Numbered from the stretch's first letter, positions 1,718 to 35,310 are shown. The stretch: DNA of 35,382 nt from Calditrichota bacterium (GCA_016867835.1 VGIQ01000015.1:1-35382); one strand, 5' to 3'. Notes: generated by a model not told the origin, from the sequence alone. Translations and numbers: made by a program.

Positions 1718-4700
1718 CTACCGGTCTCCTCCGGAGGAAACCGCGGTTGGTGCCGGTTTCATAGTGAACCTCAGCGGCCGGGAGTCAGTGGCTGATCCGT
1801 AGGTTACACCGCCTTCGCCGTCATCGGCCGACAGTCGCAGATAGTAGGTCTTCCCCGGCTCGAGCATGCCGGGCGGGACGTTGTAAGATGTTCCGTCGAG
1901 GCGGCGCATCTGGAACAGCACCTCGGCGAACTCTTCGTCGCCGGCAAGGCCTACGGTGTAAGTAACTTTTGCTCCCGGGTCGGGATCGCGCGAGGCTTCC
2001 CAACGGATCTTCAGTTCGGTGCCGGGCAGGGTGTCGCCCTCGACCGGGAAGGTGATCCGGAACGGCACCGGCGGGTCGTTGCGGAGGTTGACGACGATTT
2101 CGCCGGAGGGCGACCAAGCCGACGCGCAGCCGCGCTGATCGTTCGCCCGAACGCGCCAGAAGTGAGGCTCGTTTTCGCGCAGGTTTTCGTGCCCGGCAAG
2201 CGCGGTGAGCGCAACGCGCTGGCTCCCCAAGCCGGCTGCCGACAGAAGCGGGGATGTAAATTTCCCGTCGGCAGCGATTTGCAAAATGTAGGTTACAACG
2301 TCGCGGGGATCGGGGTCTTTCGACGCCGACCAGGTCAGTTCGCCATCGCGGTCGAGGGTGGTGCCGGAGGGAGTAACCGGCCGCGGCAGCGAGGGCGTCG
2401 AATTGGCAGCGAAGGTGAATTCCGAGCGGGCTGTGGTTTCGAGGCCGGTGTTGTCGATAGCGATGACCTTCCAGCGATAGGTCGATTCGTTTTCAAGGCC
2501 TTCGGTGAAGGTCCATTCGGTCGTCACGGTCTCGTGCCGGTAGGTCTTGCCGAGCGGCCCAAGCAATTCGACCCGATAACGAACCGACGAGCCGTAATCG
2601 GGGTCGGTTGCCGGTTTCCAAGTCAGCGACACCTCGTCAAGGGTGGCGATTTCAGCCCGGTCTGGCGGCGAAAGAAGGGTGAAAGCGGTCGGCGGATCTT
2701 CGGCGACGTTGACGAGCACCTGACCGACCGCCGTCCAGTCCGAGACGGCGCCGTCGTCGTCGCGAGACCGGAGGCGATACCTCCAGAGGGTGTTGTCGGC
2801 GAGGGTTGGCACCAGCGAAGTTGCACCGGCCGGCGACGAAACGGTGCGCATTTCAGGATCGTCGAAACCGGACGGAGTCGCCTGTAATTCGTAAACCAAA
2901 GACGACGGCGAGTCTGAGAGATCGGGATCGGACGAGGCAGTCCAACTGAAGGAAACCTTGACCGACTTGACCAACTCCTCAGTCGGTCCGGTCAAGGCAG
3001 GCTTCGATGGCGGGTCATTCACCTTGTTGAAGAAGAAACTCCCGCCCCGACTGAACGCCGAAGCGGCGGCGTGATTGTCCCGTGCCCGCACCGCCCAGTA
3101 AAAGACGGTGTTGTCGGCGAGAGCGTCGATACCGGGTAACTGTTCGAGCGCCAGCGAGGTCGCCTGACAGTCGTCAAATTGCGCTTTCACCTCCGTAAAG
3201 CCCTCATTGGCATAGATGCGCACGTCATAGACCAGCCGGTCGCTCGGATCGGGATCGACGGCGGCTTTCCAAGTTAGCGTCGCACCCGGTTTGCGCTCAT
3301 CGGTGCCGGCGAGCGGTGCGGTCAATACGGGCACTGAGGGAGTCGTTACGATGCGAAATCTCGCAGCGTCTGACTCGGTCGAAAGCCCGGTGTTGTCGAT
3401 CGCCCTCACCCGCCAATAGAAGTCAGCCTCATTGGCGAGTTCGACCGGGAGATCGAACGTCGCCGAGTTGCTGCCTTCATAAGCGACAGCGTCGGTGAAA
3501 GAGGGCGAACGGGAGACCTCGAGGCGATAGGTGACAATAGCCTGGGGATCGGGATCGGACGCGGCTTCCCAGCGAAAGGAAGGCGATAGGTCAAAGATCG
3601 TCGCCTCCCGGGCCGGCGATTGCAAGGCAAATGGTGCCGGAGGCTCTTCTCTGGTGTTGACGGCAAAATTGCGCCACTCGCTCCACGGCCCCTCCTCGAA
3701 AGGATCGACCGCACGAGCCCGGAATCGGAAGGCGCCATTCTCGGCCAGGGCGGCCGGCGTCCAGCGCACCAGGTCATCCTTCGCTTCCAGAGCCGGCGAA
3801 GGGAGGAGCATCGCTCCGCTAAGCCCGGCAACCTCCATGCGATAGGTGAGGGGGTCGCTCTCCCGGTCACGCGAGGCGACGGCTTCGAGTGCCGGCTGGT
3901 CAGTAGGGAGAACGGCATCCTCGGTTGGTGCCAAAACGGCTGGAGCGGTAGGAAGGCTGTTCATCCGGAAGGCGAGTTCGACCGGTTCGCTCCAGAACTT
4001 GCCGCTGAAGGCGGTCAGCGTCGCAGTATAGGTTTCACCGTCATCGAGAGCGAAGTTGCTGACGAATTGTTGATCTTTGGCGCGGATTTCGCCGGAACTT
4101 CCTGCGGGTTCGCCGCGTCCATTCCTCAGTTCGATACGGAATGACTTCTGCGGGCGTTCGACGACCTCGAAGTAGTTCCAGGTGAAGCGGGGCCGGTGGT
4201 CGGTCAGGTGCATCAAGTCGGAACTTCCGGCGATGGCGAAATCGCTCACCATCGGCTTGGGGGTAATAGTCGGATAGAATTTCCGGACATCGGGCGCGCC
4301 GAGCGCCTGCAGTACCACCTCGCCGCCATCGCGGTCCCCAATGACATAAGTCTGCTGGCTCGACTTGAGCGCCATATCGGCGCGGCCGGTATAGACTCCG
4401 GAAGCGGCTGCAGTTTCGTAGAGCGGAACCACTATCCCGAGCGGGTCGTGCGTCGAGGTGATCGCCAGCCCGATGATATTGCGCATCTCGGGGTCGGCGT
4501 CATCGCCTTCAAGACGGATGCGCAGGGGGGCTCCGTCCGCGACCCCGACCGGTATTTCACGATCGTAGGCATCGCTGCGGCAAAGTATTATACTCCGGAC
4601 GGCGAGCGGGTTGGTGGGGAGAATATCGGGCGGCGCGTAGAGTGGCGGATCGGTATGGACGAATGGCTCGCCGGCGTCGGCATTGCGGTCGCGGATGATG

Positions 4701-5680
4701 TCGGTGAACTTGAACCGGCCCGGCGGTGCGCCCCACCAATTGCGCGATGCCTTGATGTCGAGCAACGCTTTTTCAAGATAAATGGCGTCGCCGGGGCTTT
4801 CGAAGGCATTGCCGGTAAGTTCTGCATTGACCTGCTCGGTGAAGATAATGGTCGAAGCCCGCTCGACGGCACTGTTGCCGGCGAAGGTGTTGGAGGCGAT
4901 CTTAAGATCGGCCGAGCGGACCGCGTAGAGCGCCCCGCCGGACGAACCGGCGCTGTTGTTATGTATGTAGTTGCGGGTTATCTCGGCATCGGCAAGGCTG
5001 ATATAGAGGGCGCCGCCATTGTCGTCGGCACGGTTGCCGGTGAAGACATTATTCCTCAAGACCGGTAGGGCACCGAGCGACGACATGAGTCCTCCGCCGC
5101 GAGCGGCGCGATTGCCGGCTATGCGGCAATCACGAATCATCGGCCGGGCATTTTGAACGACCCGGATGGTCCCGTTGACAGCCCGGCATTTCCGGACTGA
5201 CGAATGTGCCACCAGCGGCGAGACCGAGATCATCTCAAGTGGCGCGCCAAACTCGAGACCCTTTACTCCGGCTTGTTCGATGATGCAGTATTCGAGAACC
5301 GACCCGCGGCTGCGGTATTGGCCGCTTTCGTCCCAAGCCGGCTCGTCGCCTTGCCCCCGGATGGAGATACCGCTCCAGTCGCCGCCGCCGGGTTCTCCGG
5401 TGAACCGGATCGAGTCGCCCGAAACGCCTCGCGCAACGAGGTCGCCTTCAACCATCAAGCCGGCTCCCGCTGCAAAACGAACGGTAACCCCCGGCTCGAT
5501 ATCGAGCCGGCTTTCCCGCTCGACCCGGAAGAGTCCGGTGACTATGACCGGCGAGTCCGAACGACGCCAAGTCTCCCCGCCGGGCGAGGCAGTGCCCGAG
5601 CGCTCGAGAGCAAGTGAGGAGGTGAACAATCCGAGAAGGCTGACGACGATCGGCAGAGTGATCCGCGCCCAAAGGCCCAT
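1718..5680 (-). CDS. Giant secreted protein: parallel beta-helix followed by seven fibronectin/Ig-like repeats
   Basis: This is a 1320-residue protein with an N-terminal signal peptide (about residues 1-25, hydrophobic and ending near SLALE). Residues about 60-335 look like a right-handed parallel beta-helix: short repeats of the type 'NNVFTGNRADDNGGALYIS', similar to PbH1 or polymorphic outer-membrane repeats. From about residue 580 to the end there are seven FnIII-like repeats. Each starts with a proline-rich linker, contains a W..A.DPDP signature and ends with a WRVRA.D-type strand. The start ATG is preceded by AGGAG with a 6-base spacing. It probably sits at the cell surface as an adhesin or a carbohydrate-binding or -cleaving protein; no catalytic motif is evident. 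Oddly, it ends in a short hydrophilic tail without a recognisable T9SS sorting domain. It is divergent from sprA and upstream of the LamG gene. Confidence 0.88.
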   Translation of the reverse strand: MGLWARITLPIVVSLLGLFTSSLALERSGTASPGGETWRRSDSPVIVTGLFRVERESRLDIEPGVTVRFAAGAGLMVEGDLVARGVSGDSIRFTGEPGGGDWSGISIRGQGDEPAWDESGQYRSRGSVLEYCIIEQAGVKGLEFGAPLEMISVSPLVAHSSVRKCRAVNGTIRVVQNARPMIRDCRIAGNRAARGGGLMSSLGALPVLRNNVFTGNRADDNGGALYISLADAEITRNYIHNNSAGSSGGALYAVRSADLKIASNTFAGNSAVERASTIIFTEQVNAELTGNAFESPGDAIYLEKALLDIKASRNWWGAPPGRFKFTDIIRDRNADAGEPFVHTDPPLYAPPDILPTNPLAVRSIILCRSDAYDREIPVGVADGAPLRIRLEGDDADPEMRNIIGLAITSTHDPLGIVVPLYETAAASGVYTGRADMALKSSQQTYVIGDRDGGEVVLQALGAPDVRKFYPTITPKPMVSDFAIAGSSDLMHLTDHRPRFTWNYFEVVERPQKSFRIELRNGRGEPAGSSGEIRAKDQQFVSNFALDDGETYTATLTAFSGKFWSEPVELAFRMNSLPTAPAVLAPTEDAVLPTDQPALEAVASRDRESDPLTYRMEVAGLSGAMLLPSPALEAKDDLVRWTPAALAENGAFRFRARAVDPFEEGPWSEWRNFAVNTREEPPAPFALQSPAREATIFDLSPSFRWEAASDPDPQAIVTYRLEVSRSPSFTDAVAYEGSNSATFDLPVELANEADFYWRVRAIDNTGLSTESDAARFRIVTTPSVPVLTAPLAGTDERKPGATLTWKAAVDPDPSDRLVYDVRIYANEGFTEVKAQFDDCQATSLALEQLPGIDALADNTVFYWAVRARDNHAAASAFSRGGSFFFNKVNDPPSKPALTGPTEELVKSVKVSFSWTASSDPDLSDSPSSLVYELQATPSGFDDPEMRTVSSPAGATSLVPTLADNTLWRYRLRSRDDDGAVSDWTAVGQVLVNVAEDPPTAFTLLSPPDRAEIATLDEVSLTWKPATDPDYGSSVRYRVELLGPLGKTYRHETVTTEWTFTEGLENESTYRWKVIAIDNTGLETTARSEFTFAANSTPSLPRPVTPSGTTLDRDGELTWSASKDPDPRDVVTYILQIAADGKFTSPLLSAAGLGSQRVALTALAGHENLRENEPHFWRVRANDQRGCASAWSPSGEIVVNLRNDPPVPFRITFPVEGDTLPGTELKIRWEASRDPDPGAKVTYTVGLAGDEEFAEVLFQMRRLDGTSYNVPPGMLEPGKTYYLRLSADDGEGGVTYGSATDSRPLRFTMKPAPTAVSSGGDR

Positions 5681-13143: not shown

Positions 13144-14187
13144 ATGACAAATGGACTTGGCATCGGCTACCTCGGCGTCGGGAGGTATCTGCCCGAGCGT
13201 GTCCTGACGAATGCCGACCTGGAACGGATCGTCGATACGTCCGACGAGTGGATCGTGCAGCGCACCGGCATCAAGACGAGGCGTATCATGGGGCCGGGGG
13301 AGTCGGTTGCCACGATGGCTATCGGTGCCGCGCGGGAGGCGCTGGCGAGGTCGGGCGTCTCGCCGGATCAGATAAGCATCGTCCGGGTCGGCGTCAACAC
13401 ACACCTGAAGTTCCCGAGTCTGGCTTCGACCGTTCAAGACGCGCTCGGTATATCGAATGCATCAGCGTCGGACATATCGGCTGGCTGCTCGGCGTTCATC
13501 TTCGCTGTTGAGGAGATCTACAACCGCCTCGCCTTCGAGAAACTCTCCACCGGCCGGGAGGCGTATGGCCTCGCCGTCGGCGTCGATGGGCTGTCGCTCA
13601 TCACCGACTGGAGCGACCGAGCGACCTGCGTCCTCTTCGGCGACGGCGCGGGGGCGGCGGTGATCGGCCCGGTCGAAGCGGGCGGGATCCTTGCCACCTA
13701 TACCCGGACGCAGGGGCAGTATGCCGACCTCCTCTACCTTGACGACTTCCTATCGAGTCCGCTTGACGACAACCCTCTATCGCCCAGCTTTGCCTTTCGG
13801 CATCGCAACGGAACGCCTTACCCGTTCCTCCACATGGAGGGTAGGAAGGTCTTTCAGGTGGCGGTGCGCTCGATGATGTCCGACATCCGGTCGGTAATCG
13901 ACCGTTACAACCTGATCAGCGGCGGGCAGTTGACCCTGGACGACATCGAGTATGTGATCCCGCATCAAGCCAATCACCGGATCGTCTCGGCAGTTGCGGA
14001 GGGATTGAAACTGCCGCCCGAACAGGTCTATTCTGAGGGAGTGGTGAACTACGGGAACACCTCGGCGGCTTCGATCCCGATCGGGTATGTCGATCAACTG
14101 GGCAAACGGCCCGGGGCGCTGGAGGTCGATGTGGCGTTCGGAGCGGGCTTTGCCAGCGGAGCGATACTAAGAAGGAATGGCGGGTGA
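13144..14187 (+). CDS. fabH: 3-oxoacyl-ACP synthase III (FabH-type)
   Basis: FabH-type enzymes condense an acyl-CoA primer with malonyl-ACP to start fatty-acid synthesis in the cytoplasm. The 347-residue protein has the family's Cys-His-Asn triad: Cys115 in DISAGCSAF, His274 in VIPHQANHRI and Asn305 in NYGNTSAAS. It also has the RTGI segment near residue 40, the LFGDGAGAAV loop and a C-terminal FGAGFASGA. It is slightly longer than typical FabH (about 320-335). The ATG has no strong ribosome site, and a predicted promoter lies about 95 bases upstream. The usual plsX/fabD/fabG neighbours are absent. Its stop overlaps the GTG of the ORF6N gene. Related thiolase-fold synthases of secondary metabolism remain possible, but the motifs favour FabH. 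Confidence 0.9.
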   Translation: MTNGLGIGYLGVGRYLPERVLTNADLERIVDTSDEWIVQRTGIKTRRIMGPGESVATMAIGAAREALARSGVSPDQISIVRVGVNTHLKFPSLASTVQDALGISNASASDISAGCSAFIFAVEEIYNRLAFEKLSTGREAYGLAVGVDGLSLITDWSDRATCVLFGDGAGAAVIGPVEAGGILATYTRTQGQYADLLYLDDFLSSPLDDNPLSPSFAFRHRNGTPYPFLHMEGRKVFQVAVRSMMSDIRSVIDRYNLISGGQLTLDDIEYVIPHQANHRIVSAVAEGLKLPPEQVYSEGVVNYGNTSAASIPIGYVDQLGKRPGALEVDVAFGAGFASGAILRRNGG

Positions 14188-14702
14188 GTATTCCCGGCGA
14201 AGTTGTTTCAAAGGAACGTGTCGAGGAACGCATCCTCACCATCCGCGGTGTTAGGGTGGTGATCGATCGCGATTTGGCAAAACTCTATGGGGTCACGACG
14301 CGCGTCTTGAACCAAGCCGCCAAGCGGAATATTGAGCGATTCCCGGAGGATTTTCGATTCCAACTGACTCAAAAAGAGCGGTCAGAGGTGATCACAAAAT
14401 GTGACCACCTCGCGGATCTTAGGTTCTCGCCAAGTCTTCCCTACGCCTTCACGGAGCATGGCGCGATCATGGCGGCAAGTGTCCTGAACAGTGAGCAGGC
14501 TATAGCGCTCAGTATCTTTGTTGTAAGAGCATTTGTCAAATTGCGAGAATATGCCTATACGACGCAAGCCTTGGAAGCTCGCCTAACTGAACTCGAGCAA
14601 CGGGTTACAGATCACGACAGCCATATACAAGAGATCGTTCAAGCTATACGGCAATTAATGCTGCCGCCTATGCCGACATCCAAGCGAAGAATGGGGTTTT
14701 AA
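14184..14702 (+). CDS. ORF6N-domain DNA-binding protein
   Basis: The N-terminal about 110 residues match the ORF6N domain (PF10543): 'LTIRGVRVVIDRDLAKLYGV', 'LNQAAKRNIERFPEDF' and 'YAFTEHGAIMAASVLNS' are family signatures. ORF6N proteins are phage- and mobile-element-associated putative DNA-binding proteins; a short coiled-coil-like tail follows (residues about 125-150). The GTG start overlaps the fabH TGA by 4 bp and is served by AAGGA at 14172-14176 inside fabH. The next gene follows after 9 bases, with its ribosome site straddling this stop. Base composition becomes AT-richer than fabH through the gene, which suggests acquisition. It may regulate the following ATPase-TOPRIM pair or act with it; that is inference. 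Confidence 0.85.
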   Translation: MSIPGEVVSKERVEERILTIRGVRVVIDRDLAKLYGVTTRVLNQAAKRNIERFPEDFRFQLTQKERSEVITKCDHLADLRFSPSLPYAFTEHGAIMAASVLNSEQAIALSIFVVRAFVKLREYAYTTQALEARLTELEQRVTDHDSHIQEIVQAIRQLMLPPMPTSKRRMGF

Positions 14703-14711
14703 GGAAGTTTG

Positions 14712-15989
14712 ATGCAAGATTCGCAGAACACTCAAGAGGATTCCAACGCTGCCGCTCCACCAGCCCAAGCCGCTGCTGGCGAACCCAAGGACACCCGCCT
14801 GATCCGCGAGATCACGCTGAAGAATATCCTCTCGTTCGGGCCGGACACCGAGCCGTTCGAACTGAAGCCGCTCAATGTGCTCATCGGGCCCAATGGGGGC
14901 GGGAAGAGTAATCTGATAGATTGTATTGGGTTGATGCGGGCGACGCCAGAGACCTATGATAATGATCCTGCAAGCACTATCAGCAGAAGCGGTTCGATCA
15001 TTGAATGGATTTGGAAGGGCGCCCCTCAGAATCCTGCCTTCATTGAAATGCGCGTCGAAAATCCCCATGGTAGAAAACTCCCTATTCATCACCGGTTATC
15101 TTTTAGGCAACAAGACCAACGGACGGTAACAGTGGATGAGATGATCGGCTCCAAGTATGATCAGTCTGCACCGGGTCCGTATTGGGTTTATGAGTTTAGG
15201 AGTGGTCATCCTCGTCTAATGACACTTCGAGAGCAGACTCCAACGGAAGAGTCGCGTGCGCTCAATAAGGGCTCATTTGATCCTAATCTCTCAATTCTGG
15301 CTCAAATTAGCATTAGCGATGTGGAACGTTATCCTTCGCTTATTCATCTTGTACAATCCTATCGAAAAATTCGAGTATATCGGGAATGGTCATTAGGTAG
15401 GCGTACAGATTCTCGCAATCCCGAACTCGCTGATTCAAGAAACGATATCCTGCTTGAGAATCTATCGAACTTGGCATTACGCTTGAATCGATTGTGGAGA
15501 ACTAAAGCGAGAGACCGGATAGAGCTGGCATTATCTGATGTTTACGAGGATGCCCGAAGCGTCTTCTTCAACATCGAAGCAGGAACTGTGCAGTTGTTTC
15601 TTCAAGAGAAATGGGATATTCCACGCACCCGCCTCTCCGACGGCACTTTGCGGTATCTTTGCCTGCTCGCGATTCTCTGTGACCCCGATCCACCGCCGCT
15701 CATTTGCATCGAAGAGCCGGAACTGGGGCTGCATCCGGATATTGTCGGGAAACTTGGCGAATTGCTGGTCGAAGCCTCCATGCGGACGCAACTTATCATC
15801 ACAACCCACTCGGATATTTTGCTCGAGGCTATTGGTGAGGAAGACCCGACCTCTGTAGTGGTCTGTGAGAAGCACGATGGAAAGACCATGCTTCATCGCC
15901 TAACACCAGAAGATATCGAACCTTATAAGGAAAACTATCGACTTGGAGACCTTTGGCTGCGGGGAGGTATTGGGGGAACTCGTTGGTAA
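14712..15989 (+). CDS. AAA_21/OLD-like ATPase of a candidate defence pair
   Basis: This is a 425-residue SMC/RecF-type ABC-class ATPase. It has a Walker A motif IGPNGGGKSN (about residue 59), an ABC-like signature LSDGTLRYL (about 308-316), a Walker B motif LICIEEPELGLHP (about 330-342) and an H-loop IITTHSD (about 362-368), as in AAA_21/OLD family proteins. The middle (about 90-290) is variable and AT-richer. I chose ATG 14712 rather than the TTG one codon upstream because AAGGAAG at 14701-14707 gives a normal spacing. The stop overlaps the presumed start of the TOPRIM-like gene, so the two are probably translationally coupled. Such ATPase + TOPRIM pairs occur in OLD-class and AbiL-like phage-defence systems. 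ATP hydrolysis is supported by the motifs; the defence role is inferred from context. Confidence 0.87.
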   Translation: MQDSQNTQEDSNAAAPPAQAAAGEPKDTRLIREITLKNILSFGPDTEPFELKPLNVLIGPNGGGKSNLIDCIGLMRATPETYDNDPASTISRSGSIIEWIWKGAPQNPAFIEMRVENPHGRKLPIHHRLSFRQQDQRTVTVDEMIGSKYDQSAPGPYWVYEFRSGHPRLMTLREQTPTEESRALNKGSFDPNLSILAQISISDVERYPSLIHLVQSYRKIRVYREWSLGRRTDSRNPELADSRNDILLENLSNLALRLNRLWRTKARDRIELALSDVYEDARSVFFNIEAGTVQLFLQEKWDIPRTRLSDGTLRYLCLLAILCDPDPPPLICIEEPELGLHPDIVGKLGELLVEASMRTQLIITTHSDILLEAIGEEDPTSVVVCEKHDGKTMLHRLTPEDIEPYKENYRLGDLWLRGGIGGTRW

Positions 15990-16561
15990 AGAATGTCATC
16001 TACTTAGAGGGGAGTCCATCTGGTCCTGATTCCAAAAATCTGCAGAGGAAATGCAAAGAGGCATTTCGAAAATTGTTTGAGAACTGCGGTTTTGTGGATT
16101 CAATGCCGAGACTATTTGCGTCTGGTAGCAGGGACAACGCATTTAGGGATTTTACGAACAGTATTCAGCAACACACTGGTTATGTCGCTATGCTTATCGA
16201 TAGTGAGGGTCCAATCGCCGACGCCGAAAAGCCCTGGGACCATCTAAAGAAGCGCGACAAAAGTTGGAAAAAGCCCAAGAGCGCGATTGATGAGCAAGTT
16301 TTGCTGATGACTACTTGTCAAGAGACCTGGGTGCTGGCGGATTTGCAGGCTAAACGCGGTGACAAGGTCGATGTGAATTTAGAAGAGGTGGTCAAAGAGG
16401 AGATAAAAGCCCGTTTGGACAAGGTCAGCGATAGCAAGTATGACAAGTCCAGTGGCATACAGTTTGAATTCGTTGGCGCGATCGATCCTGATAACCTGAT
16501 GCCCCTTCCCTCTTTTGCCCGCATGATCAGGATACTAAAGAAGTTCTTAACCGCTGTCTGA
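15983..16561 (+). CDS. DUF4276/TOPRIM-like nuclease-type partner protein
   Basis: The 192-residue product begins VKNVIYLEG, with Glu9 in the position of the TOPRIM glutamate. LIDSEG follows, with Asp73-x-Glu75 in the position of the DxD motif. Near residue 105-120 is 'DEQVLLMTTCQETWVLAD', which closely resembles the conserved C-terminal segment of DUF4276 proteins. Those proteins commonly sit next to AAA_21 ATPases. I placed the start at TTG 15983, overlapping the ATPase stop (15987-15989) with a G-rich stretch just upstream; TTG 15953 is an in-frame alternative. The likely role is the nuclease partner of the ATPase, by analogy to OLD and AbiL-type systems. The family match comes from motifs only; a fold search is needed to confirm TOPRIM. 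Composition is AT-rich relative to the flanks. Confidence 0.68.
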   Translation: MVKNVIYLEGSPSGPDSKNLQRKCKEAFRKLFENCGFVDSMPRLFASGSRDNAFRDFTNSIQQHTGYVAMLIDSEGPIADAEKPWDHLKKRDKSWKKPKSAIDEQVLLMTTCQETWVLADLQAKRGDKVDVNLEEVVKEEIKARLDKVSDSKYDKSSGIQFEFVGAIDPDNLMPLPSFARMIRILKKFLTAV

Positions 16562-25294: not shown

Positions 25295-25945
25295 ATGAAG
25301 TTTTTTATCGATACCGCCAATCTGGCACAGATCAGGGACGCCTCGGCAATGGGCGTACTCGACGGCGTGACGACGAATCCGTCGCTGGTGGCGAAGGAGG
25401 GCAAGCCTTACGAACCGCTTCTGAAGGAGATTTGTGAACTTGTGGACGGGCCGGTCTCAGCGGAGGTAACCGCTACCGACCTGAAGGGAATGCTGCGCGA
25501 GGGAAAGAAACTGGCGAAGATCCACCCCAACATCGTGGTGAAGTTGCCGATCACCCGCGACGGCGTAGCGGCCTGCGTCGAATTGGCGCGAGCCGGCATC
25601 CACACCAACATGACGCTCTGCTTTACGCCGCTTCAGGCATTAGTCGTCGCCAAGGCCGGAGCCTCGTTCGTCAGCCCCTTTGTCGGACGGCTCGACGACA
25701 TCAGTTTTGATGGAATGCAGTTGATCCGTGACATCGTGCAGATTTACGACAACTACGACTTTGGGACGCAGGTGCTGGTGGCTTCGGTGCGGCACCCGGT
25801 GCACCTCCTGGAAGCCGCGCTTGCCGGCGCCGACATCGCGACGATCCCTTACGACGTTATTACGAAGATTCTAAGCCATCCGTTGACCGACGCCGGGCTG
25901 CAAAAGTTCCTCGACGACTGGAAAAAGGGCGGGCAGAAGATATGA
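25295..25945 (+). CDS. Small transaldolase / fructose-6-phosphate aldolase family protein
   Basis: The 216-residue protein belongs to the short TalB-like transaldolase/FSA family. It has the N-terminal [10 protein letters not shown], the '[13 protein letters not shown]' segment, the Schiff-base lysine Lys83 in VVKLPIT, and '[11 protein letters not shown]'. Such enzymes transfer or cleave dihydroxyacetone units in the cytoplasm (pentose phosphate pathway). Length is normal. Motifs alone do not separate transaldolase from aldolase activity. Its stop overlaps the ATPase start in an ATGA. Confidence 0.93.
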
Positions 25946-27135
25946 CACACTTCCCCAAAGGGGATAGTCCGTTTCACCCCGGCAAGCCGGTTCCGGTGGA
26001 ACTGTTTGTCGGACGACGCGAACAAATCGAGCGTATTTTATCTCGTGGTGCTGGGCCGGTTTCGCGAGGCAATCCAAAGACGGTCTTCATCCAGGGTGAG
26101 TATGGAATCGGAAAGACCTCGCTCGCTCATTACATCCAATGGCAGGCAGAATTGAACTATGGCTTGCAGCCAATCTATGTCACCCTGGGGGGAGCCAGCA
26201 CGCTTGACGACGTCGCCGCGGCGGTGTTGACCAGTGTGACCAAGGCGGCAGTTTCAAGCCAGTCGATCTGGAACCGTGCCAAAGACATTGTGGCGAAATA
26301 TGTTATTATGGAGAAGAGTATTCTGGGGTTTAGACTTAACCTCGAGGCTCTTAAAAGTGATGCTTTAAACATCGTATCTCCTTTGGCACTATTGACATTC
26401 CTCGAGAGTTTTGCACAGACAATTAAGACCCCCTCTATCTGCCTAGTCTTCGATGAAATCAATGGAATAGCATCGTTGCGTGAGTTCAGCGGCCTCATCA
26501 AGGGACTTGTTGAATCCAACGCAGTGTCGCCAAAACCGTTTCAATTGCTTCTTGTTCTATGCGGAACCGAAGAAATCCGCAATGAAATGACAAGCAACTA
26601 CGTGTCTGTTGCAAGAATTTACGACTTGATTGTCATTAACACACTTTCAAACGAAGAGACGATTGAGTTCTTCAATGAATCCTATGCTAAAGTGAATATT
26701 GGAGTTTCTTCTGATGCATTGTCGATCCTTCAAAATACATCGGCAGGCATTCCAAGAATTATGCATTTGATCGGTGATCATACTTTTTGGGCGGACGAGG
26801 ATGGATACATAGACAAGGAAGATGCACTCAAAGGATGTCTTGCCGCGACAGAAGAATGGGGACAGAAATACGTTCATAAGAGAGTCTATCAAGCACTTAA
26901 AAGCAAAGACTACCATGCAATCCTCAAGAAGATGATGCAGTTCCCTATGACTGATGACACCATTGATATAACTGAATTTCAAAAGCAGTTATCCAGCAAC
27001 GAAAAGAGTAAACTAAGCAATTTCCTTACGAGAATGAAGAAAATCGGCGTTATTGAAAGAGGCCGACACAAAGGTGAATATGCCTTTAGATCCAAAATAG
27101 AACGACTCTATCTCTGGCTTAAATCTCGTGAATAG
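25942..27135 (+). CDS. AAA/STAND-like ATPase with C-terminal winged-helix region
   Basis: The 397-residue protein has an N-terminal [11 protein letters not shown] box (residues 23-33), a Walker A motif GEYGIGKTS (52-60), a Walker B motif ICLVFDEIN (166-174) and a sensor-like [10 protein letters not shown] (202-211). The C-terminal about 80 residues look like a winged helix ('[27 protein letters not shown]'). It resembles ORC/Cdc6-like or archaeal-type AAA ATPases, often found in regulators or defence proteins. The ATG overlaps the transaldolase TGA by 4 bases. The first about 340 bases are GC-rich like the neighbours, and the rest is clearly AT-richer. It converges on the DUF4956 gene with 22 bp between stops. 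No partner gene is seen, so the specific function is unknown. Confidence 0.83.
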
Positions 27136-34419: not shown

Positions 34420-35310
34420 ATGAAAATTGCTACTATTAGGAGTCTTTCTGTGCATAATCTTCCGCTAATGTTCTTAGCTTTGCCCTCGTTGGCATTGCTT
34501 TTCAGCAGTAGCCAATTGTGCTGCCAAACACACATCGGCGGATGGATAAATGGAACACTTACGCGAGAGGGTAATCCTTATCATGCTGATGATGGATCCA
34601 ACGGATTTGGAGTAAGGAACGGAGACACGCTTCTTATTGAGCCAGGTGTAATTATCCTTATTCCATGGCGCGGCATTATAATCGTCGAGGGTGTGTTGCT
34701 AGCATTAGGAGCAAATGAGGATTCTATCTATTTTGATAGATTGGGAAATCGAAATTGGATTGGCATTATCTTCATGGACACTCTAAGGTCACAGCAATGC
34801 TCCATGTTTCAATTTTGTATTTTCAATAATATGAGCCCACCCAATGAGTTCGCCAATGAGCCACCCGCCATTTCCATTTCCGAATACTATGATTCAATTC
34901 GTTTTGACTGGTGTATGTTTAGCAATTTTAGAGTTGGCGTTTCCACAATCAGGGCGCAGGTGGCGCGCATTTCAAACTGTCAATTTGTCAATATGACAGG
35001 TATTTCGGGATTCGCATTTAGCCCAGGTTTCAACAATACTTTCATTGAATCATCTATTTTCAATCGGGTTATTATTGGGATAGCTACAGGAGGTGGTTTC
35101 ATGCTCCAGGGTTGCCTTTTCCTAGAATGTGACAGGGCAGTATCGTATGTAGTATATGATCCAGTGGAATTACCGCTTGTAGTCAGAAATTGCATATTCG
35201 TTTTGGGAAATCCAACTCTTAGTATTAATTGTATTGTCTTGTCAACGTGTTTACAATCAAGCAGCTTTTGGAGCCGCGATAAGTCGTTCTGCTGGGGTGC
35301 AGCCGTTTAG
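34420..35310 (+). CDS. AT-rich secreted beta-helix-like protein, truncated by an IS element
   Basis: The frame opens with ATG preceded by AGGAG at 7 bases and lies 8 bp after the mini-CTD frame. The first about 36 residues form a signal peptide (MKIATIRSL, hydrophobic core FLALPSLALLFS). The rest reads like a right-handed beta-helix: repeated short strands such as 'NGDTLLIEPGVIILI', 'ARISNCQFVNMTG' and 'VRNCIFVLG', similar in style to the beta-helix part of the 1718-5680 protein. The last about 25 codons (from about 35235) overlap the IS481-type element, so the true gene was probably longer and the printed C-terminus is vector-like read-through. Composition is clearly AT-rich compared with the GC-rich chromosome, suggesting transfer. 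Function is unknown. Confidence 0.7.
   Translation: MKIATIRSLSVHNLPLMFLALPSLALLFSSSQLCCQTHIGGWINGTLTREGNPYHADDGSNGFGVRNGDTLLIEPGVIILIPWRGIIIVEGVLLALGANEDSIYFDRLGNRNWIGIIFMDTLRSQQCSMFQFCIFNNMSPPNEFANEPPAISISEYYDSIRFDWCMFSNFRVGVSTIRAQVARISNCQFVNMTGISGFAFSPGFNNTFIESSIFNRVIIGIATGGGFMLQGCLFLECDRAVSYVVYDPVELPLVVRNCIFVLGNPTLSINCIVLSTCLQSSSFWSRDKSFCWGAAV

What the first reader, a model, noticed from the sequence alone, without database searches (positions are those of the whole stretch)
14184..16561. ORF6N + AAA ATPase + TOPRIM/DUF4276-like cassette coupled to fabH
Three tightly packed genes (4-bp overlap, 9-bp gap, 7-bp overlap) look AT-richer than their flanks and begin inside the fabH stop. The ATPase has a full Walker A, signature, Walker B and H-loop; the last gene has Glu/DxE and the DUF4276-like QETWVLAD block. 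ATPase-TOPRIM pairs are known phage-defence modules (OLD, AbiL-like); the ORF6N partner is less familiar and could be a regulator or sensor. The pair is established in outline; the three-gene combination is the possibly new part.
Basis: partly seen in the sequence, partly recalled or inferred. Interest (0 to 1): 0.62.

Follow-up and report, generated by a model that had tools for sequence, protein, structure and literature searches.

The report
HEC-01 defence pair beside stray ORF6N
Two of the three genes form an already catalogued candidate phage-defence pair (an ATPase and a predicted OLD-like DNA/RNA-cutting enzyme), while the third gene is an unrelated neighbour that happens to sit beside them, so the proposed three-gene system does not hold up.

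Summary
The three ORFs are real and packed as described. The ATPase (14712-15989) and third gene (15983-16561) are a PADLOC HEC-01 pair: PDLC04177 at 467 bits and PDLC04201 at 135 bits. DUF4276 just passes Pfam's cut-off. An AlphaFold model of the third protein (pLDDT 94) has the OLD C-terminal region as its best PDB match (prob 0.90, E 0.04). Residues equivalent to OLD's metal ligands and catalytic lysine are invariant or nearly so in 71 relatives, so it is probably an OLD-like TOPRIM nuclease. The pair is conserved: 77 of 80 related ATPase loci have it, 70 of 73 scored starts with a 4- or 7-nt overlap. The ORF6N gene is not part of it. None of those 80 loci has ORF6N nearby, 37 of 43 of their genomes hold none, and none of about 39 ORF6N genes elsewhere has HEC-01 beside it. 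ORF6N matches a different single-gene candidate, PDC-S05. The one unusual thing is the locus: a sister genus has HEC-01 in the same place behind fabH, in two alleles whose effectors are 35% identical while flanking miaB is 99%. The window ATPase has host-like ends and an AT-rich centre, which suggests segment exchange; rapid divergence is not excluded.

The parts
14712..15989 (+). HEC-01A: ABC-type AAA_21 ATPase, 425 aa, subunit A of the pair
   Evidence: PADLOC PDLC04177 467 bits, E 9.5e-141; Pfam AAA_21 108 bits
14886..14909 (+). Walker A, GPNGGGKS (residues 59-66)
   Evidence: sequence; G59 and G64-K65-S66 invariant in A1
15633..15644 (+). ABC signature LSDG (residues 308-311)
   Evidence: sequence, conserved in A1
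15696..15722 (+). Walker B, PLICIEEPE (residues 329-337)
   Evidence: sequence, near-invariant in A1
15807..15809 (+). H-loop histidine H366
   Evidence: invariant in A1
14979..15581 (+). variable centre of the ATPase (residues 90-290), AT-rich: fourfold-site GC 0.43 against 0.89 in the conserved blocks
   Evidence: least like the same-locus G008 gene of 87 sequences compared
15983..16561 (+). HEC-01B: DUF4276 protein, predicted OLD-like TOPRIM nuclease, 192 aa
   Evidence: PDLC04201 134.6 bits; Pfam DUF4276 31.3 bits; AlphaFold pLDDT 93.8; best PDB match OLD C-terminal region 6nk8
16007..16009 (+). E9, TOPRIM glutamate after strand 1
   Evidence: 71/71
16199..16207 (+). D73-S74-E75, TOPRIM DxE motif after strand 3
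   Evidence: D 71/71, E 70/71
16322..16324 (+). E114, at the start of the first helix after the TOPRIM core, putative second metal ligand (like OLD E508)
   Evidence: 71/71; equivalence inferred from PMC6755086
16445..16447 (+). K155, putative catalytic lysine (like OLD K562)
   Evidence: 71/71; equivalence inferred from PMC6755086
14184..14702 (+). ORF6N protein, 172 aa; PADLOC PDC-S05; judged a neighbour, not part of the pair
   Evidence: Pfam ORF6N 98.3 bits; PDC-S05 178.9 bits; no association with HEC-01 elsewhere
13144..14187 (+). fabH-like ketoacyl-ACP synthase III, the conserved anchor upstream; not part of the system
   Evidence: full-length or near-full-length matches in 7 of 8 other genomes of the family (one of them split over two contigs)

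Best explanation
The functional unit is the two-gene pair 14712-16561, a HEC-01 candidate phage-defence operon. The first protein is an ABC-type ATPase whose conserved blocks bind ATP and dimerise, and whose variable centre probably senses a phage cue. The second is a small OLD-like TOPRIM nuclease held or released by the ATPase. On infection, nucleotide-driven change in the ATPase would license the TOPRIM protein to cut nucleic acid with two metal ions, stopping phage or host. Shown here: gene pairing and overlap, motif conservation, fold similarity. Inferred: complex formation, sensing, substrate and defence. ORF6N (14184-14702) is an independent single gene, probably DNA-binding, that lies between fabH and the pair by chance.
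For: HEC-01A and HEC-01B are the top PADLOC models, with large margins. 77 of 80 ATPase loci across bacteria and archaea carry the partner gene directly downstream; 70 of 73 scored starts overlap by 4 or 7 nt. The partner's AlphaFold model (pLDDT 93.8) matches the OLD C-terminal region best (6nk8, prob 0.90), and E9, D73/E75, E114 and K155 are 70-71 of 71 conserved, in the order of OLD E400, D455/D457, E508, K562 (PMC6755086). Intact ATPase motifs. Upstream neighbours of HEC-01 are diverse, with no recurrent third gene; type I specificity subunits are the commonest at 4 of 47. ORF6N: 0 of 80, absent from 37 of 43 of those genomes at E 0.001, 0 of about 39 reciprocal; the sister genome has the pair behind fabH without ORF6N.
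Against: No experiment on this HEC-01 subfamily was found in the papers held; HEC names are candidates. The OLD fold match has E 0.04 and TM about 0.47, with no match below 0.001. The equivalence of E114 and K155 with OLD residues rests on order and helix position, not on measured geometry. The window's effector departs from near-invariant positions (Q113, S156, Q160), so it could be weakened. One ORF6N beside one of 32 DUF4276 genes is above a uniform expectation of about 0.03, so a purely local partnership is not strictly excluded.
Confidence: 0.8

Rival explanations
1. A three-gene defence system in which ORF6N is a sensor or transcriptional regulator of the ATPase-TOPRIM pair.
For: Tight packing and shared direction; one adjacency against about 0.03 expected; a relative of the ATPase in G006 carries a fused Mrr_N DNA-binding domain (53 bits), so a DNA-binding partner is conceivable.
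Against: 0 of 80 homologous pairs and 0 of about 39 other ORF6N genes show it; 37 of 43 HEC-01 genomes have no ORF6N; the same-locus pair in G008 lacks it; ORF6N sits directly behind many other genes.
Confidence: 0.06
2. The pair is a toxin-antitoxin-like or plasmid-control module rather than phage defence.
For: Pfam names AAA_21 a putative AbiEii toxin/TA domain; an unleashed OLD-like nuclease could plausibly be toxic to its host (inference).
Against: The best models are HEC-01, not AbiE; the pair often lies behind chromosomal housekeeping genes and sometimes beside type I specificity genes. Defence and TA readings overlap in mechanism.
Confidence: 0.12
3. A decaying remnant: the locus retains readable ORFs but no function.
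For: AT-rich, with several near-invariant effector positions changed; ORF6N and HEC-01 fragments or stops occur elsewhere in the phylum.
Against: Three intact, tightly packed ORFs; all catalytic motifs kept.
Confidence: 0.07

Closest known systems
PADLOC HEC-01 (Hma-embedded candidate 01)
   Same: Both genes, their order and overlap; top models PDLC04177 and PDLC04201
   Different: Here it is preceded by an unrelated ORF6N gene; the effector matches its model more weakly (135 bits) than the sister allele does (203 bits)
PARIS (AriA-AriB)
   Same: ATPase and TOPRIM on separate genes (PMC10568477); ATPase matches an AriA model (111 bits)
   Different: HEC-01A scores 467 bits; the effector has no AriB hit in PADLOC
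OLD nucleases (class 1 and class 2/Gabija GajA)
   Same: ABC ATPase with an OLD-like TOPRIM; active-site residue order
   Different: OLD is one chain; no UvrD-like helicase gene directly beside this pair
AbiL (AbiLi/AbiLii)
   Same: ATPase matches AbiLi at 73 bits
   Different: No AbiLii hit; HEC-01A is far better
PADLOC PDC-S05 (ORF6N single-gene candidate)
   Same: The ORF6N gene matches at 179 bits and stands alone elsewhere
   Different: Here it directly precedes a HEC-01 pair

Membership tests
HEC-01 | HEC-01A ATPase | tested here: met
   467 bits, residues 29-425 over profile 3-393 of 393
HEC-01 | HEC-01B directly downstream | tested here: met
   134.6 bits over 1-199 of 202, 7-nt overlap
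HEC-01 | protection against phage | not testable with these tools
   needs an experiment
TOPRIM fold (third protein) | TOPRIM/OLD fold by structure | tested here: inconclusive
   best PDB match is OLD 6nk8, prob 0.90, TM 0.47/0.45, but E 0.04 and nothing below 0.001
TOPRIM fold (third protein) | conserved Glu after strand 1 and DxD/E after strand 3 | tested here: met
   E9 71/71; D73 71/71; E75 70/71; strands 5-8 and 68-72
OLD two-metal nuclease | second-metal Glu in first helix after the core, and catalytic Lys | tested here: inconclusive
   E114 and K155 71/71 in the right order; distances could not be measured
PARIS | AriB effector | tested here: not met
   no AriB model among PADLOC hits of the third protein up to E 0.5
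AbiL | AbiLii partner | tested here: not met
   no AbiLii model among PADLOC hits of the third protein up to E 0.5
ORF6N-ATPase-TOPRIM three-gene system | ORF6N recurs beside the pair | tested here: not met
   0 of 80 and 0 of about 39 reciprocal
PDC-S05 | ORF6N protein matching the PDC-S05 model | tested here: met
   178.9 bits

The most novel reading that the evidence does not exclude
HEC-01 is a split OLD-type immune pair that stays at one chromosomal site (behind fabH) in part of this bacterial family while its sensor centre and its effector are exchanged by recombination through the conserved ATP-binding blocks, so that one locus presents many specificities. Evidence: two alleles in one sister genome bin with 35% identical effectors between 98.7% identical miaB and a near-identical Walker B block, and ATPases with host-like ends and foreign-like centres in two genera. 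Not excluded: simple rapid divergence in the window gene (AU p 0.51).
Probability: 0.3. Interest if true: 0.55.

Novelty: new member of a known kind. Interest (0 to 1): 0.3.

Why it matters
It settles a plausible but wrong three-gene reading and gives HEC-01B, labelled only DUF4276, a concrete enzymatic hypothesis with named residues to mutate. If the allele exchange is real, HEC-01 would show how a resident immune locus can change specificity without moving.

Tried and rejected
A three-gene unit: rejected by the neighbourhood survey. A recurrent other upstream partner of HEC-01: none found; 4 of 47 type I specificity subunits, the rest diverse. PDB sequence search for the third protein: only chance hits. 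ORF6N structure: model of medium quality (pLDDT 78), no convincing PDB match; weak Ski/Dachshund-like resemblance, not used. Viral structure library for the third protein: nothing convincing. Viral contigs: one real HEC-01 pair (L157), the other 25 hits distant ATPases; no ORF6N relative. A phylogenetic proof of the mosaic: failed; the centre's branches are very long and a window+G008 clade is not rejected (p 0.51), and in the 59-column head the pair groups at 89% only. Flanking tRNA or repeats at the window's site: none. miaB behind the window's pair: not there; it lies on another contig, C132.

Full report
Observation. The three ORFs exist as stated and are packed as stated. Their GC is about 0.49 against about 0.60 around them. 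The motif reading was right: Walker A, signature, Walker B and H-loop are intact in the ATPase, and the third protein carries an E...DxE pattern and the ETWxxAD block.

What the genes are. The ATPase is AAA_21 (108 bits) and, far more specifically, PADLOC HEC-01A (PDLC04177, 467 bits). The third protein is DUF4276 in Pfam, barely over the cut-off (31.3 against 30.2 bits), and PADLOC HEC-01B (PDLC04201, 134.6 bits). The ORF6N protein (98 bits) has PADLOC PDC-S05, a separate single-gene candidate, as its best hit. HEC means Hma-embedded candidate. A 2026 archaeal survey says that several HECs, HEC-06 among them, showed antiviral activity, and that validation is pending for most of the prevalent PDCs (PMC12988326). 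No experiment on HEC-01 itself was found in the papers held.

Is the pair a unit? A scan of about 85,000 species' genomes with a profile of the ATPase returned 80 relatives (the best 80 of 580 candidates) in Chloroflexota, Planctomycetota, Acidobacteriota, Methanothrix and others. A DUF4276-type gene follows in 77 of 80. Of 73 scored starts (72 of these loci and one viral contig, L157), 70 overlap the ATPase by 4 or 7 nt; start codons were chosen by rule near the ATPase stop.

Is ORF6N a third member? No. None of the 80 loci has an ORF6N gene in its flanks, up to 6 kb on each side where the contig allows. Of 43 of those genomes, 37 have no ORF6N match at E 0.001. In the window's phylum (39 genomes) 32 DUF4276 and 26 ORF6N matches occur, on a shared contig only here. 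Searching outward from about 39 other ORF6N places found no HEC-01 beside any (1.5 to about 5 kb inspected). In the 12 ORF6N loci read further the gene is a lone one, mostly co-directional behind unrelated genes: recR with a 4-nt overlap, gapA twice, transporter genes, an HSDR_N gene (names other than HSDR_N are from reading the protein starts). One adjacency against about 0.03 expected under uniform placement is unusual, but it is one case chosen after the fact, and both gene kinds are often found directly behind housekeeping genes.

How the pair probably works. AlphaFold gives the third protein a confident model (pLDDT 93.8, pTM 0.89). The best PDB match is the C-terminal region of B. pseudomallei OLD (6nk8, prob 0.90, TM 0.47/0.45, E 0.04), and T. 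scotoductus OLD is at rank 16. Bp OLD uses E400 and D455/D457 for metal A, E508 in the first helix of the helical domain for metal B, and K562 in a later helix (PMC6755086). In 71 relatives E9, D73, E114 and K155 are invariant and E75 is 70 of 71; E9 and D73/E75 directly follow predicted strands 5-8 and 68-72, and E114 starts the helix 113-124. I therefore read HEC-01B as an OLD-like two-metal TOPRIM nuclease. The TOPRIM motif is supported, the fold match is good but not significant on its own, and the E114 and K155 equivalences are inferred. PARIS (separate AriA and AriB; PMC10568477) is the closest characterised layout, but the effector has no AriB hit, so it works like PARIS or OLD without being filed there. 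ATP-driven sensing by the variable centre is inference from that analogy.

The locus. In the sister genus G008, a HEC-01 pair lies between fabH and miaB with no ORF6N. The same genome bin holds a second allele on contig C65: miaB is 157/159 nt identical, a Walker B stretch of about 71 nt is nearly identical, yet the effectors are only 35% identical. That points to replacement of alleles at one site, though a duplication or a binning error is not excluded. In the window and in G008 the ATPase's conserved blocks have host-like fourfold-site GC (0.89 and 0.80) while the centre has 0.43 and 0.27 (Fisher p 7.6e-9 and 1.2e-9). In 81 other homologues the difference averages 0.04, SD 0.08, maximum 0.26; three further genomes of the phylum show 0.26 to 0.33. 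Against 87 homologues the G008 gene is the window's closest relative in the Walker A block (88%, next 73%) and the most distant in the centre. This fits exchange of the centre, but a tree of the centre does not reject sisterhood of the two (p 0.51) and both branches are very long, so fast divergence remains possible.

Verdict. An ordinary though well-preserved HEC-01 pair beside an unrelated ORF6N gene; the possibly new three-gene combination is not supported.

Noticed in passing
L067 (G008:C210) 2704-4846 and L074 (G008:C65, reverse strand): Two HEC-01 alleles beside miaB in one genome bin: effectors 35% identical, miaB 157/159 nt identical.
   Followed up: partly
window 14979-15581: Centre of the ATPase has fourfold-site GC 0.43 while the flanking ATP-binding blocks have 0.89; the sister-genus gene shows the same contrast.
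   Followed up: partly
L044:1162-2667 (G006:C75): HEC-01A with an in-frame N-terminal Mrr_N DNA-binding domain (53 bits), followed by its DUF4276 partner.
   Followed up: partly
window 25942-27135: Another AT-rich gene (AAA_16/STAND-like ATPase, 397 aa) starting in a 4-nt overlap with the transaldolase stop, with no PADLOC hit.
   Followed up: partly
G000:C74 12864-14511 (L076): A second, distant HEC-01-like pair (ATPase 31% identical) at a contig end in the same genome.
   Followed up: no
L237 4633-6345 (G008:C98): ORF6N next to an HSDR_N-domain gene, both lying between a solute-binding protein that resembles the window's 19328-21259 gene and an ABC permease.
   Followed up: no
L245 and L247: In two different families of the phylum an ORF6N gene lies directly behind gapA.
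   Followed up: no
window 34420-35310: AT-rich gene with weak beta-helix similarity at the contig end.
   Followed up: no
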